From Rubellimicrobium roseum (GTDB taxonomy: Bacteria; Pseudomonadota; Alphaproteobacteria; Rhodobacterales; Rhodobacteraceae), in assembly GCF_006152145.1 (NCBI RefSeq), contig NZ_VDFV01000010.1:1-64000 (forward strand): 64,000 nucleotides of DNA. Direction: 5' to 3'. The translations under genes were made by a program, and so were the position numbers. The notes below the pieces were generated by a model. That model was not told the DNA's origin, ran no database searches, and saw nothing but the letters and a program-made list of their open reading frames with translations. Position 1 is the stretch's first letter, and each line of letters begins with the position of its first letter. Of the stretch, positions 58,507-64,000 are shown one piece after another.

Positions 58507-59300
58507 AGAGCGGAGCGCACTGAGGCTTCCGCCTCGGCCGCCAGCGTCTTGCGATCCCGCCCCGCCACGGGGATCGGCGGATGGAATGTCACCTTGACCC
58601 GCCCGCCGCGCCGGGCCGCCAGCACCGCCAGCGCGTGCGGCCCGAGGTCCATTCCGCCGTACCAGGCGAAGAAGCGCGGGTCCTCGCCTTCGGGCGCCTC
58701 ATAGCGCAAAGTTACCGGCTGCACGGCTGGCCCGGCCATCAGCCCGGCGAAGAGCGCCGGCCGGAACGGCAGGACGCGGCGATTGTCGGTCGAGGTGCCT
58801 TCGGGAAACAGCGCGAGCCGCGCCCCCTGCCCGATCCGCTCAGCCAGCGTCTGCGCCTGCGCCGCCACCTCGCCCCGCGCCTCCCGCCGGATGAAGACCG
58901 TTCCCGTCGCCCGCGCCAGCAGCCCGATCCCCGGCCAGCCCGCCACCTCAGCCTTGGACACGAAGACGACCGGCGCCTGCGCGTTCAGAACCAGGATGTC
59001 CAGCCAGGACGAGTGGTTGGCCACCAGCGCGCCCGGCCCCTGCATCGGCCGCCCCCGTGCTTCGACCCTCAGGCCCAGGATGCGCATCGCGATCCGGCAG
59101 ACGGCGACCGTGATCCAGGGCGACAGGGGTCGGCGCGCCCCAGCCAGCGGCCGCTCGACCGCCCGCACCAGCAGCTTCAGCCCAAGCCCCAGCGCCAGGA
59201 CGGTGACCAGAGGCCCGCCCCGCAGCAGGACCAGCGCCCAGCCGACCGCGCCCGGCCGGGCCGGCACGAGATCCGGCCCGTCGCGCCAGGTCAGGCTCAC
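58503..59300 (-). CDS. Lysophospholipid/lyso-ornithine-lipid acyltransferase (PlsC/OlsA family)
   Basis: A membrane-bound acyltransferase of 265 aa. The catalytic HX4D motif is NHSSWLDI and the second block is FPEGTSTDNRRVLPFRP. An N-terminal hydrophobic segment (VLALGLGLKLLVRAV) anchors it. Its GTG start overlaps the olsB stop by four bases, so it probably adds the second acyl chain to the lyso-ornithine lipid made by OlsB (OlsA role). A general PlsC role is also possible. Confidence 0.88.
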   Translation of the reverse strand: MSLTWRDGPDLVPARPGAVGWALVLLRGGPLVTVLALGLGLKLLVRAVERPLAGARRPLSPWITVAVCRIAMRILGLRVEARGRPMQGPGALVANHSSWLDILVLNAQAPVVFVSKAEVAGWPGIGLLARATGTVFIRREARGEVAAQAQTLAERIGQGARLALFPEGTSTDNRRVLPFRPALFAGLMAGPAVQPVTLRYEAPEGEDPRFFAWYGGMDLGPHALAVLAARRGGRVKVTFHPPIPVAGRDRKTLAAEAEASVRSAL

Positions 59301-60043
59301 CCCGCCGCCTTTCCCGGCATCACCCGCTTGTTGAGCGATCCGCTGTCGAGCACCATGCAGACGTCGATGCAACCGAACGCCTCATCGAGAAACGCCCCTT
59401 CGCCGACCCCCGCCCCCAGCCGGAGGTAGGCCTTGACCAGCGCGGGCATCGCTAGGACTGCCGCGCGCCGGTCGAAGATTCTCCCCGTCATGGGAACGGG
59501 CCGAAGGGATCGTGGCCGCAACTCCTTGGGCGCGGCATGCTCGGCCGCGAGCACGCCGAGTTGCGGCGCGACCTCCGCCGGGTCGAGACCCCGGAGTGAC
59601 GCGAGTCCGAAGATCAGCTCGGTCCCTTGCTCCGCCACGACCTGCGCAAGGCCGCCCCATAGCTGGTGCAGCGCCGAGCCCCCGCGGTGATCGGGGTGCA
59701 GGCAGGTCCGGCCCACCTCCAGGAGCCGTCGCCCCGAGTCCCGAAGCGGCCCAAGATCGAATTCCTCCTCGGTGGCGTATCCCCCTGCCGCCCGGGCCCC
59801 CTCGGGCGTGAGCACCCGCGTCGTCCCCACGACGGCGCCGTCCCGCAGGGGATCGACCAGCAACAGATGCAGGCAGTGCGGGTCGAATCGGTCGGCTTCG
59901 ATCCGCCGCTCCCCATCCGTAAGGGCGCCGCCCCTCCCGCCAAGCTCGGCCACGAAGACGGCGTGACGCAGCGCCTGCGCCGCCGTCACGTCAGCGCCGT
60001 CGATGGCCGCCCGCAGCAGGTAGCGCGGCGCAAGGCGCGTCAT
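59297..60043 (-). CDS. olsB: Ornithine acyl-ACP N-acyltransferase (OlsB-like GNAT)
   Basis: The first enzyme of ornithine-lipid synthesis, joining 3-hydroxyacyl to ornithine. At 248 aa it has the GNAT-like OlsB order: RHAVFVAELGG, DPHCLHLLLVDPL, VVGTTRVLTPEGA, LEVGRTCLHPDHRGG and FGLASLRGLDP. The start at 60043 (MTRLAPRYLLRA) is favoured. An upstream Met at 60115 would give 272 aa but is less family-like. A TTAA-N7-GCAAC box lies in the resulting leader. Ornithine lipids replace phospholipids under phosphate limitation. Confidence 0.88.
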   Translation of the reverse strand: MTRLAPRYLLRAAIDGADVTAAQALRHAVFVAELGGRGGALTDGERRIEADRFDPHCLHLLLVDPLRDGAVVGTTRVLTPEGARAAGGYATEEEFDLGPLRDSGRRLLEVGRTCLHPDHRGGSALHQLWGGLAQVVAEQGTELIFGLASLRGLDPAEVAPQLGVLAAEHAAPKELRPRSLRPVPMTGRIFDRRAAVLAMPALVKAYLRLGAGVGEGAFLDEAFGCIDVCMVLDSGSLNKRVMPGKAAG

Positions 60044-60090
60044 CCCCAAACCGACAACTCCCTGTTGAGCCCGCGTCACGGGGCCAGCCG

Positions 60091-60106
60091 TTAACCCTTT
60101 GGCAAC
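60091..60106 (+). promoter_or_regulatory. CtrA-like degenerate box upstream of olsB
   Basis: TTAACCCTTTGGCAAC (two departures from TTAA-N7-TTAAC) is 48 bases upstream of the favoured olsB start. It would be inside the gene if the longer start at 60115 were used. The proximity to chpT, a CtrA-pathway gene, is suggestive only. Confidence 0.25.
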
Positions 60107-60135
60107 CAGACTCATGTAGGCTTTCCGCAGGACCC

Positions 60136-60330
60136 CTAGAAGGGGGTCTGACCAAGGGAGACGAGGGTCAGGGGAATGCGCGCGCCGTCGATGACGATCT
60201 TGCCCGTTTCGGGAAAGTTGACGGTGATGCGTTGACCCACGACGGACTGCACCTGCCCCGTGCCCCATTCGGGGTGGTCGGGATGCGCGACCAGCATCCC
60301 CGGCGCGAGGATCGAGTTCATGTCGGACAT
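60136..60330 (-). CDS. DUF3553 domain-containing protein
   Basis: A 64-aa protein. The segment ILAPGMLVAHPDHPEWGTGQVQSVVGQRITVNFPETGKIVID matches DUF3553, a small beta-barrel related to the UvrD/RapA-type Tudor-like module that may contact RNA polymerase or nucleic acid. It is divergent from chpT, as in many Rhodobacteraceae. Met at 60330 or 60321 could start it. Function unknown. Confidence 0.85.
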   Translation of the reverse strand: MSDMNSILAPGMLVAHPDHPEWGTGQVQSVVGQRITVNFPETGKIVIDGARIPLTLVSLGQTPF

Positions 60331-60395
60331 CGGGTCCCTCGGTCCAGGAACGGAAAGGCCGCGCGGCGGCACGGAAGCGAAGGGTGCACCCGCTC

Positions 60396-61049
60396 ATGAC
60401 CGAAGTCCACAGCATCGCCGACGATCTCCTTGCGACGGATCGCCCCGCGGGCGCGTCCGACCCGGCGATCGCACTGGCCGCGACGATCGTGTCGCGGATC
60501 TGCCACGACCTCGTGAGTCCCCTTGGCGCGCTCGCCAACGGCGTGGAGCTCCTGGCCCTTTCGGGGGAGGAGCCTTCGCCCGAGATGCAGCTCATCGCCC
60601 AAAGCGTGGAAAGCGCGAATGCCCGCGTCCGCTTCTTTCGCCTGGCCTATGGCGCCTGCAGCGATCAGGTCGTCGGCCGGTCCGAGCTGTCGCGTCTTCT
60701 TGCCTCGATGTCGCGCAGCGGCCGCATCGCCTACGACTGGCCGCTGACGGTCGAGCAGCCGCGCCGCATCGTCCAGGTGATGTTCCTCGTCTTCCAATGC
60801 CTCGAATCGGCTCTTCCGGCGGGCGGTCGCATCGTCGTTCGGCCCCGTGGCAGCCGTTGGGAGGTCACGGCGGATGGACCACGGCTCCGCCTGAATCCAA
60901 CGGCCTGGGACTGCCTGGGCCTTCCCCGAACCCCACCGCCCGCCGGGCCGTCCCTGGTGCAATTTGGCCTTCTTGCTACCGCGCTCGCCGACTCGCGACG
61001 TCAAATAGAGTTCGACTTCGGCCCGGATCGTATCGTCGCCCGCTTCTGA
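60396..61049 (+). CDS. chpT: Histidine phosphotransferase ChpT
   Basis: The relay protein of the CckA-ChpT-CtrA/CpdR pathway that controls cell cycle, motility and gene transfer agents. The 217-aa protein has the dimerisation helical hairpin with phospho-acceptor H37 (SRICHDLVSPLGALANGVELLAL) and a degenerate HATPase-like C-terminal domain that lacks nucleotide-binding boxes. The ATG at 60396 is chosen over the GTG at 60384. It is divergent from the DUF3553 gene. Confidence 0.9.
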   Translation: MTEVHSIADDLLATDRPAGASDPAIALAATIVSRICHDLVSPLGALANGVELLALSGEEPSPEMQLIAQSVESANARVRFFRLAYGACSDQVVGRSELSRLLASMSRSGRIAYDWPLTVEQPRRIVQVMFLVFQCLESALPAGGRIVVRPRGSRWEVTADGPRLRLNPTAWDCLGLPRTPPPAGPSLVQFGLLATALADSRRQIEFDFGPDRIVARF

Positions 61050-61126
61050 CCGCTGGCGCGGAACGGCGGCAAGCTACCTTCCGACATGACGGGCGCTGGA
61101 CCGCCGCGTGACGAGGACGCCGACGC

Positions 61127-61675
61127 ATGACCGACCCCGAGAACCTGCGGCGCATCGCCGCCGCCTTCAACCTGGCTGCGCAGGCCCATACGGGCCAGAC
61201 CCGCAAGGGCGCAGCGGCGGAACCATATGTGAATCATGTGGCCGACGTTGCCGCCCGCCTCGCACAGAGCCCGGCGGTCACGGATGACTTGCTGATCGCG
61301 GCCATCCTCCACGATGTCGTGGAGGATACCGCCCACAGTCTCGACGAAATTATCCAGCGCTTCGGCCCAGAGGTCGCAGGCTACGTCGCGGAGGTCACGG
61401 ACGACATGTCATTGCCTGATGCAGAGAGGAAGCGGCGGCAGGTCGAGGAAGCCCCCCGCAAGTCCGATGGAGCGAAGCGGATCAAGCTGGCCGACAAGGC
61501 TTCGAACATTGCCGCCCTGGCCGACTCGCCCCCGCATTTCTGGGACCGAGCGCGGAAGCGCCGCTATCTCGAATGGGCGCGAGAAGTTGTAGCGGGGCTG
61601 CGGGGCGTCGACCCCCTGCTGGAAGGAGCCTTCGACCGCGAGTCGACCCGGGCCGAATCGGTTCTGGACGACTGA
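61127..61675 (+). CDS. Stand-alone HD-domain (p)ppGpp hydrolase-like protein (MESH1-like)
   Basis: A small 182-aa HD phosphohydrolase. The metal-binding pattern is complete: H37 (YVNHVADVA), H62-D63 with ED at 66-67 (ILHDVVEDTAHS), and a later Asp in RIKLADKASNI. No synthetase, TGS or ACT domain follows, so this is a short hydrolase like MESH1/SAH enzymes. It would clear ppGpp or NADPH-type substrates. It ends just before the low-GC segment. Confidence 0.85.
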   Translation: MTDPENLRRIAAAFNLAAQAHTGQTRKGAAAEPYVNHVADVAARLAQSPAVTDDLLIAAILHDVVEDTAHSLDEIIQRFGPEVAGYVAEVTDDMSLPDAERKRRQVEEAPRKSDGAKRIKLADKASNIAALADSPPHFWDRARKRRYLEWAREVVAGLRGVDPLLEGAFDRESTRAESVLDD

Positions 61676-61811
61676 TGCAGTACATTGCGCGAAAAACGGC
61701 GGGTACATTCGATGGCCCAAGTGAACGGCCTTGCATAGCAAACCTTAGGGTTCCGGCTGGCGGCGGAAGTGACTCCACAACGGCGTAACAGGACGGCATG
61801 ATGCGCCAGTC

Positions 61812-62039
61812 ATGTTCAGCCGTCTCTCTTTCATCTTGAGTCTTGCCGCTTCGGGTGTTCCCCTACTCTTGTTCGCGGTCCAAGCGTTCGGAGATGCCCA
61901 GGCTGCCAACGATATGCTGGGTTTTCTGGCCCCAGGCGTCCGGGAGGCGGTCTTGTCCGACGCCGGTCTTGTGACGGTGTTGGCCACTAGCTATTTCTGC
62001 TTCGCTTGGCTTCTTTACCGTGAACACACAGCGAGCTAG
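61812..62039 (+). CDS. Small hypothetical membrane protein, possibly truncated by an amber codon
   Basis: A 75-aa protein with two hydrophobic segments: FILSLAASGVPLLLFAVQAFG and GLVTVLATSYFCFAWLLY. No family is recognised. The TAG at 62037-62039 is followed in the same frame by 23 further sense codons (RARKGLAALQDEIRAAHLNFEMI) with amphipathic helix character. This suggests that the stop is a nonsense mutation in a longer gene. Base composition is lower in GC than its neighbours. The 5' end is not well supported; there is only a weak ribosome binding site. Confidence 0.45.
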   Translation: MFSRLSFILSLAASGVPLLLFAVQAFGDAQAANDMLGFLAPGVREAVLSDAGLVTVLATSYFCFAWLLYREHTAS

Positions 62040-62149
62040 CGGGCGCGCAAAGGTCTTGCCGCCTTGCAGGATGAAATCAGAGCGGCCCACCTCAACTTCG
62101 AGATGATCTAAAGGCTGACGTCGAGGAGCATGGTCGGCACGTTGCTTCC
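62040..62149 (+). pseudogene. Possible decayed linker between the two hypothetical ORFs
   Basis: The frame of the first ORF continues past its TAG to a TAA at 62109-62111. The frame of the second ORF is open from 62075. A -1 shift near 62105 would give ...AAHLNFEM-DLKADVEEHGRHVASV..., a continuous helical run. This is consistent with a single ancestral membrane protein broken by one stop and one frameshift. It could also be coincidence. Confidence 0.3.
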
Positions 62150-62623
62150 GTGTCGCGCCGAGTAGCCCGAGAAGGCGTAATTGCCGCTGGCGTGTCCGGC
62201 TTGGTTCAGGCCAACTGGTCCGCTTTCCAGAGTCTCGCTGACCATAGACAGCACTTGCAAGCCGCTGAGGGTCTGGCCGCGCCGGGAGTGAGCAGGGATG
62301 CGTGGTTACGGACCTTGACGATCTACACGGCAGAGTACGGCCTATTGATATCTGCGCTCATTTCCCTTGCTGCATCCACAGGCGACTATAACCCAAGGCC
62401 TTTAACCTCTAACTACACGTTCTTGCATTCGGAACGCTTTGTGGACATGACGAGTGAGACCCTACGCTTCGCTGTGATGGAAAGCGAGCTTTCGACGGCC
62501 TTGGCAGCTTTAATGCCGCTGATCAAGTTGCATGCGCCGGACTTGCTGAACGCGAAATTCTTTAGAGATCATGTTCGCCAAGCTATACCGCAGAAAGGCG
62601 GCGGTGAACCTTTCCCGCAATAG
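62150..62623 (+). CDS. Hypothetical protein (157 aa), possible C-terminal part of a split gene
   Basis: Begins at a GTG without a clear ribosome binding site. The sequence is mainly helical (SAFQSLADHRQHLQAAEGL), with one hydrophobic stretch (YTAEYGLLISALISLAAS) and a C-terminal domain with SERFVDMTSETLRFAVMES. No known motif was recognised. The frame is open upstream as far as 62075, so the true 5' end may lie there or in the preceding ORF. Base composition matches the preceding ORF. Function unknown. Confidence 0.45.
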   Translation: MSRRVAREGVIAAGVSGLVQANWSAFQSLADHRQHLQAAEGLAAPGVSRDAWLRTLTIYTAEYGLLISALISLAASTGDYNPRPLTSNYTFLHSERFVDMTSETLRFAVMESELSTALAALMPLIKLHAPDLLNAKFFRDHVRQAIPQKGGGEPFPQ

Positions 62624-63294
62624 CTCGTTGCGAATATTCACCTCATCAGGCCCGATCCGCTACACCGGTTGAGCGTAGTTCACGCCCGCTCGCTTCAGTA
62701 CCGCCCCCGAGAGATTCGGGGCATCCGTCCCGAACACATAAACCTGCCTTGAGCACCGTACGGCGCGTCGGTGACGTGGCCCCTTGCTGGTCGAGAGGCA
62801 CCGCTGGAGGAGGGGCTGACCTCGGCTCGGGGACGACCCGGCCCGCCTCGGGAGCGGATTCCGAGGCCACCCTCCGGGTCTGCCAATCAGGCAAGGCACT
62901 CATCGGCTGCGCTTTATGGTCAACGGTCGGGCGAAGGGCGAGCCTGCCGAGGATGGTCGGCCGGCAGGTCGGACGGACCGCCCATGGCCAGAGAACTGGA
63001 CCGCGTATCGCGCGTACTGGGATCCATTGAGCCCCACGGCACGTCGGACAGGCTCTCCGGACGCGGCGGCTTTAGGCCCATGGCGCGCGCCATGGCCCAG
63101 GACCCTGACCGTCCAACCTCCGGGCGCCTCCCACCCGCATCGCTCTCGAAAACCGTACCTCGGCCCGCGGCACCGCGGGGATTGGGCGCGTCGCTGGACC
63201 CTGAAGCACCGAGGGCAGGTCCGTCCCCAGCCTGGGCGGCGCCCCAACAACACCATAGATGCGAACTGTTCCGCAGATATGCCTCTTCCGGCGA
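62624..63294. other. 671-bp stretch without a credible gene
   Basis: All frames on both strands give Arg/Gly/Pro-rich or unrelated sequences. GC returns to chromosomal level. It contains an 18-base perfect palindrome CCATGGCGCGCGCCATGG at 63078-63095. A degraded gene or mobile element remnant is possible, but no family could be recognised. Confidence 0.45.
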
Positions 63295-64000
63295 TCAGAG
63301 GGCGCGGCCCAGGCGCCGTCCCTCGTAGAAGGCGTAGGGAGCCTGCCGGGGGGCGGCGGCGTCGCCGATCACGTGGCATTCGAGATCCTTGAGGTCCTGC
63401 GACAGCGGCTCGAAGGCCCGGTTCGTGGTCGCCATCACCAGCGCCTGGGCCGTCACCCGCTCCTCGTGACTGTCGAGGAGTGAGCGCAATGTGGCTCCGT
63501 CGCCGTGCCACGCAAGGACCGCATGATCGGGCAGCATCCGCACGCCCAGCCGCGCGAGCCTTTGCCGCAGCGGGATGTCGGCCGAGGTGCGCGAAAGCTC
63601 GCGGCCCACATAGGGATCGGGCGTGACCAACGTCACGCGATGCCCGGCCTCGGCCAGATGCCAGGCCGTGCCGGCGCCCCGCCAGTTGCCGCCTTCGTCA
63701 TAGACGATGACCTCCTCGCCCAGACGGGCCGCCCGGCGCAGGACCTCCTCGGGCGACCAGACGCCGCCCTGATCGAGCCCCGGCAACGGCCCAAGGTCCG
63801 GAAGCCATCGCTGCGTCGCCTCCTCGTCGGGCAGCGAACCGGTGGCCAGGACCACCGCGTCGGGCTCCAGCGCGCGCACCTCGTCCGCTTCGAGGAAGGT
63901 GTTGCGCAACACGCGGACCTGAAGGGTCGTGAACTGCCGCTCGTACCAGTCGATGAGGTCGAGGATCTGCGCCCGGCGCGGCTGAAGCCCGGCCAGCCGG
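63295..64000 (-). CDS. NADH:flavin oxidoreductase/FAD-NAD(P) oxidoreductase, 5' end beyond window
   Basis: The C-terminal part of an oxidoreductase of the 2,4-dienoyl-CoA reductase / dimethylamine dehydrogenase type. The frame stays open to the window edge (RRAQILDLIDWYERQFTTLQV...). The Rossmann-like segments are DAVVLATGSLPDEEATQRW and VIVYDEGGNWRGAGTAWHLAEAGHRVTLVT, ending with CHVIGDAAAPRQAPYAFYEGRRLGRAL, the family's typical terminus. At least the N-terminal FMN barrel is missing from view. Substrates in related demethylases include methylated amines. Confidence 0.8.
   Translation of the reverse strand, partial: RLAGLQPRRAQILDLIDWYERQFTTLQVRVLRNTFLEADEVRALEPDAVVLATGSLPDEEATQRWLPDLGPLPGLDQGGVWSPEEVLRRAARLGEEVIVYDEGGNWRGAGTAWHLAEAGHRVTLVTPDPYVGRELSRTSADIPLRQRLARLGVRMLPDHAVLAWHGDGATLRSLLDSHEERVTAQALVMATTNRAFEPLSQDLKDLECHVIGDAAAPRQAPYAFYEGRRLGRAL

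What the first reader, a model, noticed from the sequence alone, without database searches (positions are those of the whole stretch)
61812..62623. Possible single membrane protein split by an amber codon and a -1 frameshift
After the TAG of the 61812 ORF the same frame continues for 23 helix-like codons, and a -1 shift near 62105 joins it to the 62150 ORF as a continuous helix. The result would be two membrane helices, a coiled linker, a third hydrophobic segment and a soluble end. This may be decay, a phase-variable gene, or programmed recoding.
Basis: partly seen in the sequence, partly recalled or inferred. Interest (0 to 1): 0.55.

Follow-up and report, generated by a model that had tools for sequence, protein, structure and literature searches.

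The report
Decayed cargo gene of a transposon
Two neighbouring reading frames are most likely the broken halves of one membrane-protein gene that was once cargo of a small mobile element of the IS1595 kind, now worn down, so this looks like gene decay and not a special way of reading the genetic code.

Summary
In detail: ORF1 ends in TAG at 62037, its frame stays open 23 codons more, and a -1 change in 62075-62108 leads into ORF2. Codon usage favours coding past the TAG and, weakly, before ORF2's start. Downstream on the minus strand (62728-62549) lies a damaged DUF6471 gene (E 8e-14). In 51 of 66 DUF6471 loci of relatives an IS1595-type transposase is near; 48 have both inverted ends, 42 of these an exact 8-bp duplication. 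Their left part is a cargo slot with a very variable gene. The window keeps a worn left end (61726), the slot's leader motif (61771) and a start codon at nt 88 (87-93 in 8 of 19 motif-bearing relatives), and ORF1+ORF2 fill the slot. Transposase and right end were not found, nor an IS1595 transposase in the draft genome. I saw no slippery site, and RNA folds are ordinary. No homologue of the cargo protein was found, so its function is unknown. Verdict: relic of a transporter IS with a decaying cargo gene; ordinary. The living elements' diverse cargo slot is more interesting.

The parts
61726..61743 (+). worn left terminal inverted repeat of an IS1595-type element (its inner part, from 61744 on, no longer matches)
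   Evidence: Weight matrix from 73 terminal repeats of relatives; the site scored from 61725 is the best of 127964 positions on both strands of the window with 19 matrix positions, but rank 200 of 127948 with all 27 and 349 of 127978 with 12
61771..61778 (+). leader motif GACTCCAC of the cargo slot
   Evidence: GACTC[CT]AC is present in 19 of 59 related elements, 42-75 nt from the left end; here at nt 47; six occurrences in the whole window on both strands
61812..62039 (+). ORF1: N-terminal part of the broken cargo gene, two hydrophobic segments, ends in TAG
   Evidence: ATG at nt 88 from the left end; in the 19 motif-bearing relatives the listed ORF starts at nt 87-93 in 8, at 32-113 in 9 others, at 238 and 390 in two
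62040..62108 (+). same frame beyond the TAG, 23 open codons with coding-type codon usage (tested to 62101)
62075..62108 (+). stretch in which the -1 frame change must lie (both frames open)
62102..62623 (+). ORF2 with the open frame before its GTG: C-terminal part of the broken cargo gene
   Evidence: its stop overlaps the 3' end of the DUF6471 remnant, an overlap also seen in part of the relatives
62549..62728 (-). DUF6471 remnant with an in-frame TAG and a lost stop codon
   Evidence: tblastn with L009's DUF6471 against the whole window: 51.7% identity over residues 9-68 of 68, E 8e-14, the only significant hit; Pfam PF20075 E 0.0018, below its cut-off; DNA 77% over 62595-62697; TAG, frame running on past the end

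Best explanation
The two ORFs are the halves of one cargo gene of a transporter insertion sequence (an IS1595-family element that carries passenger genes). Intact relatives read: left inverted repeat, leader, cargo gene, convergent DUF6471 gene, IS1595 transposase, right inverted repeat, with 8-bp target duplications. Here the left part remains: worn left end, leader motif, cargo gene broken by a TAG and a -1 change, DUF6471 broken by a TAG. The transposase and right end were not found. Shown: the anatomy and the damage. Inferred: the two ORFs were once one membrane-anchored protein, the element inserted whole and later lost its right part, and nothing functional is now made from it. The cargo protein's biochemical role is unknown; most likely a membrane-anchored accessory protein without a role in transposition.
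For: DUF6471 remnant directly downstream. Of 66 DUF6471 loci examined, 51 have an IS1595-type transposase match close by, 59 the left repeat, 48 both repeats, and 42 of those 48 an exact 8-bp duplication, 2 more 7 of 8. Window left-repeat match, leader motif and start position; leader alignment with L085 over 49 columns, one 3-nt gap, running through the start codon. In the 19 elements with the motif a single ORF covers at least 75% of the slot in 16. Codon usage. G+C 0.52-0.61 at 61700-62749 against 0.64-0.77 in the windows of 59000-64000 that do not overlap it. No transposase match in the window or elsewhere in the draft genome.
Against: No homologue of the cargo protein was found, so the single-gene reading rests on codon usage and slot anatomy, and the shuffle test before ORF2's start is weak (252 of 5000). 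The full 27-position repeat model ranks the left end only 200th of 127948, and the 19-position cut was chosen after seeing the site. No right repeat and no second copy of the left flank CAAGTGAA in 61601-64000. Related elements of about 1.2-1.3 kb without transposase exist (L136, L141 with exact duplications), so the transposase may never have been in this copy. A 34-nt match of the linker to another gene's antisense strand is unexplained if it is not chance.
Confidence: 0.9

Rival explanations
1. Programmed recoding: TAG read-through plus a -1 frameshift makes one protein.
For: Frames are open and coding-like on both sides of each break.
Against: Needs two recoding events; by eye no slippery heptamer; RNA folds no better than shuffles (z -0.31, -0.83, -0.41); the neighbouring DUF6471 gene is broken too.
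Confidence: 0.02
2. Two separate short genes share the cargo slot.
For: In 20 of 59 slots no single ORF covers 75%, so multi-gene or broken slots occur.
Against: 16 of the 19 slots with the same leader motif have one ORF covering at least 75%; frame 0 is coding-like beyond ORF1's stop and frame 2, weakly, before ORF2's start; by eye no ribosome-binding sequence just before GTG 62150.
Confidence: 0.06
3. Sequencing or assembly errors in an intact gene.
For: The genome is a draft of 155 contigs.
Against: By eye no long homopolymer at the breaks; several lesions (TAG, -1, TAG in DUF6471, worn repeat, missing transposase and right end) would all have to be errors.
Confidence: 0.02

Closest known systems
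IS1595 family, transporter insertion sequences (tIS) with passenger genes
   Same: The relative in L009 has the family's transposase domain and zinc ribbon; relatives have inverted repeats and 8-bp duplications. PMC8101967 (passages) gives 8-bp TSDs and, except in one group, an N-terminal zinc finger as family features; PMC3129680 (passages) describes ISs with passenger genes; PMC5704250 (passages) names tISCpe8 and MTnSag1 as IS1595-type examples.
   Different: In this copy no transposase and no right end were found. The DUF6471 gene plus one highly variable convergent cargo gene was named in no title or abstract start that I saw listed (two searches listed none); only passages of three papers were read, and the 2009 IS1595 paper itself was not.
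DUF6471 (PF20075)
   Same: The minus-strand remnant aligns to residues 9-68 of the 68-residue L009 protein.
   Different: Broken by a TAG, stop lost, Pfam score 18.6 against a cut-off of 26.8.
Cargo gene of L085 and its relatives L079 and L125
   Same: Leader alignment of 49 columns through the start codon with L085; L079 and L125 have two hydrophobic peaks (1.77 and 1.35; 2.04 and 1.49); L085 is broken too.
   Different: No significant protein similarity to the window's reading; the best phmmer match to any passenger is L084, E 0.17.

Membership tests
IS1595-family transporter IS | DDE_Tnp_IS1595 transposase in the element | tested here: not met
   No transposase hit in the window (best E 0.58) and none in the draft genome at E 0.001; so the locus is filed as a relic derived from such an element, not as a member
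IS1595-family transporter IS | terminal inverted repeats | tested here: inconclusive
   Worn left repeat found (rank 1 to 349 of about 128000 for model lengths 12-27); no right repeat
IS1595-family transporter IS | 8-bp target duplication | tested here: inconclusive
   Only the left flank can be named; CAAGTGAA has no second copy in 61601-64000. Relatives: 42 of 48 exact
IS1595-family transporter IS | passenger gene in the slot next to DUF6471 | tested here: met
   Slot length, start position, leader motif and overlap with DUF6471 lie within or next to the range of relatives
DUF6471 | Pfam PF20075 above its gathering score | tested here: not met
   18.6 bits against 26.8 for the read-through remnant; homology itself is clear by tblastn, E 8e-14

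The most novel reading that the evidence does not exclude
The living relatives form an IS1595-type transporter group with a dedicated cargo slot between a leader and the DUF6471 gene, in which unrelated orphan genes are exchanged (47 cargo proteins fall into 17 clusters). The window would be a dead snapshot of one more cargo type. DUF6471 might serve the exchange or regulate transposition.
Probability: 0.25. Interest if true: 0.5.

Novelty: new member of a known kind. Interest (0 to 1): 0.2.

Why it matters
It explains an apparent split gene as transposon-cargo decay, and it points to a little-described group of IS1595-type elements that carry different orphan genes in the same slot from genome to genome. 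Those intact elements, not this relic, would be worth study as vehicles of small membrane proteins.

Tried and rejected
Homologues of the joined reading or of ORF2: own genome (besides itself one weak match, E 0.185), 61 genomes, its own included (only itself), viral contigs, phages, plasmids, 390 genomes of the order (besides itself three at E 0.006-0.009, 33-40% identity over parts, not followed), genome contigs twice (pattern matches, none confirmed). DNA of the region against plasmids: none; against 394 genomes of the family: one 34-nt match, antisense to a gene that I read as nadE (recalled, no family scan), without a counterpart in the own genome, taken as chance. Pfam, PHROGs and PADLOC on the window ORFs: nothing over a cut-off or below E 0.05. 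PDB sequences: best E 0.0023, to 7on7 (a designed protein, recalled), not credited. AlphaFold of ORF2 alone: pLDDT 46.9, helical, not used for a fold search; of a four-member cargo family: pLDDT 63.3, pTM 0.38, not searched either. Synteny: in the three relatives in which both were found (G001, G002, G007) the HD-domain gene and the gene at 63295 lie on different contigs, so an empty site could not be shown; the neighbourhoods fetched were not analysed.

Full report
Observation. ORF1 (61812-62039) ends in TAG; its frame is open for 23 more codons to a TAA at 62109; the frame of ORF2 (62150-62623) is open from 62075, so a -1 change anywhere in 62075-62108 joins them. Codon frequencies from 15 cargo genes of related elements show frame 0 coding-like after the TAG (+4.5 bits; 10 of 5000 shuffles) and frame 2, weakly, before ORF2's start (+2.2; 252 of 5000). 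GC by codon position agrees: the position poorest in GC shifts with the frame. Two hydrophobic segments are clear (2.23 and 1.63), the third is weaker (1.49).

Surroundings. The stretch lies in a G+C trough (0.52-0.61 at 61700-62749 against 0.64-0.77 in the windows of 59000-64000 that do not overlap it) between an HD-domain gene (61127-61675 +) and an oxidoreductase gene (from 63295 on the minus strand). A DNA search of the eight genomes of the genus gave a 77% match of 62595-62697 to G007, the only other genome with a match. There it is the minus-strand DUF6471 gene (PF20075, E 6.8e-25) between a membrane-protein gene and an IS1595-type transposase. Against the whole window the DUF6471 protein has one significant hit, 62728-62549 minus, 51.7% identity, E 8e-14, with an in-frame TAG and a frame that runs on past its end.

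The intact elements. PF20075 occurs in 48 of 390 genomes of an order sample and in 34 of 394 of a family sample that overlaps it. I fetched 66 loci: 65 of the 72 distinct hit rows plus the G007 locus; seven rows were left out (G440 twice, G250, G143, G549, G563, G018). In 51 of 66 an IS1595-type transposase match, pieces included, lies close by; 59 have a left repeat and 48 both repeats (at most 8 of 27 mismatches); in 42 of 48 the flanking 8 bp are an exact duplication, in 2 more 7 of 8; the other four are L062, L089, L090 and L091. Elements with both repeats measure 1221-3979 bp. Between left repeat and DUF6471 lies the cargo slot: 47 cargo proteins of at least 150 aa form 17 clusters at E 1e-3. 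Two of the 47 match the M78 peptidase family; the other Pfam matches are single and weak. No PADLOC model is matched by more than two members (capP and RmrA among them).

The window as one of them. A matrix built from 73 repeats of 40 loci ranks the site scored from 61725 first of 127964 positions with 19 matrix positions; for lengths 12 to 27 its rank varies between 1 and 349, and it is 200 at full length. The 19-position cut was made after seeing the site. The leader motif GACTC[CT]AC, found in 19 of 59 related elements 42-75 nt from the left end, is at nt 47 here. ORF1's ATG is at nt 88; in the 19 motif-bearing relatives the listed ORF starts at nt 87-93 in 8, elsewhere in 11. The leader of L085 aligns over 49 columns, with one 3-nt gap, through the start codon. 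ORF2's stop overlaps the DUF6471 end by about 75 nt (from the coordinates); relatives with an overlap show 1-74 and one 135, while others end before DUF6471. In motif-bearing slots 16 of 19 have one ORF over at least 75% of the slot, and 14 of 19 have two hydrophobic peaks of at least 1.3 within the first 130 residues, a threshold set after seeing the values (L085, itself broken, is among the five that do not).

Damage. TAG and -1 in the cargo gene, TAG and lost stop in DUF6471, worn left repeat, no right repeat, no transposase match in the window or in the draft genome (a copy lost in an assembly gap cannot be excluded). Further right, 63101-63195 resembles the end of another transposase. RNA folding gives no sign of recoding, and no promoter or terminator pattern was found in 61600-63300.

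Conclusion. A relic of an IS1595-type transporter IS whose cargo gene is decaying. The transporter-IS concept is published (PMC3129680 and PMC5704250, passages read; the 2009 IS1595 paper that they cite was not read). A search for DUF6471 found no paper in the library. The function of the cargo is unknown.

Noticed in passing
window 63101-63195 (+): Remnant of the C-terminal end of a second transposase: DNA 72% to G007 (L010), whose protein matches DDE_Tnp_1; 14 of 21 residues identical over 63133-63195. That it is IS5-like is recalled.
   Followed up: partly
L136, L141: Elements of 1310 and 1221 bp with both repeats (L141's right one with 7 mismatches) and exact 8-bp duplications but no transposase match, as if moved by a transposase acting from elsewhere.
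   Followed up: no
19 of 59 elements among L058-L097 and L117-L142, 42-75 nt from the left repeat: The motif GACTC[CT]AC is shared by elements whose cargo genes are otherwise very different; a short leader frame or an RNA/DNA signal is possible.
   Followed up: partly
L085: Another cargo gene broken inside its slot, with its transposase match in two pieces; L079 and L125 are its cluster mates with long single ORFs.
   Followed up: no
window 62044-62077: 34 nt at 91% identity to the antisense of a gene that looks like nadE (recalled) in G079 (L109 1501-1534); no counterpart elsewhere in the own genome, probably chance.
   Followed up: partly
L090, L127: Cargo proteins that form one cluster; two of the 47 cargo proteins scanned match the M78 (IrrE-like) peptidase family, and L090 shows the HEIAH motif, so these two are probably the ones.
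   Followed up: no
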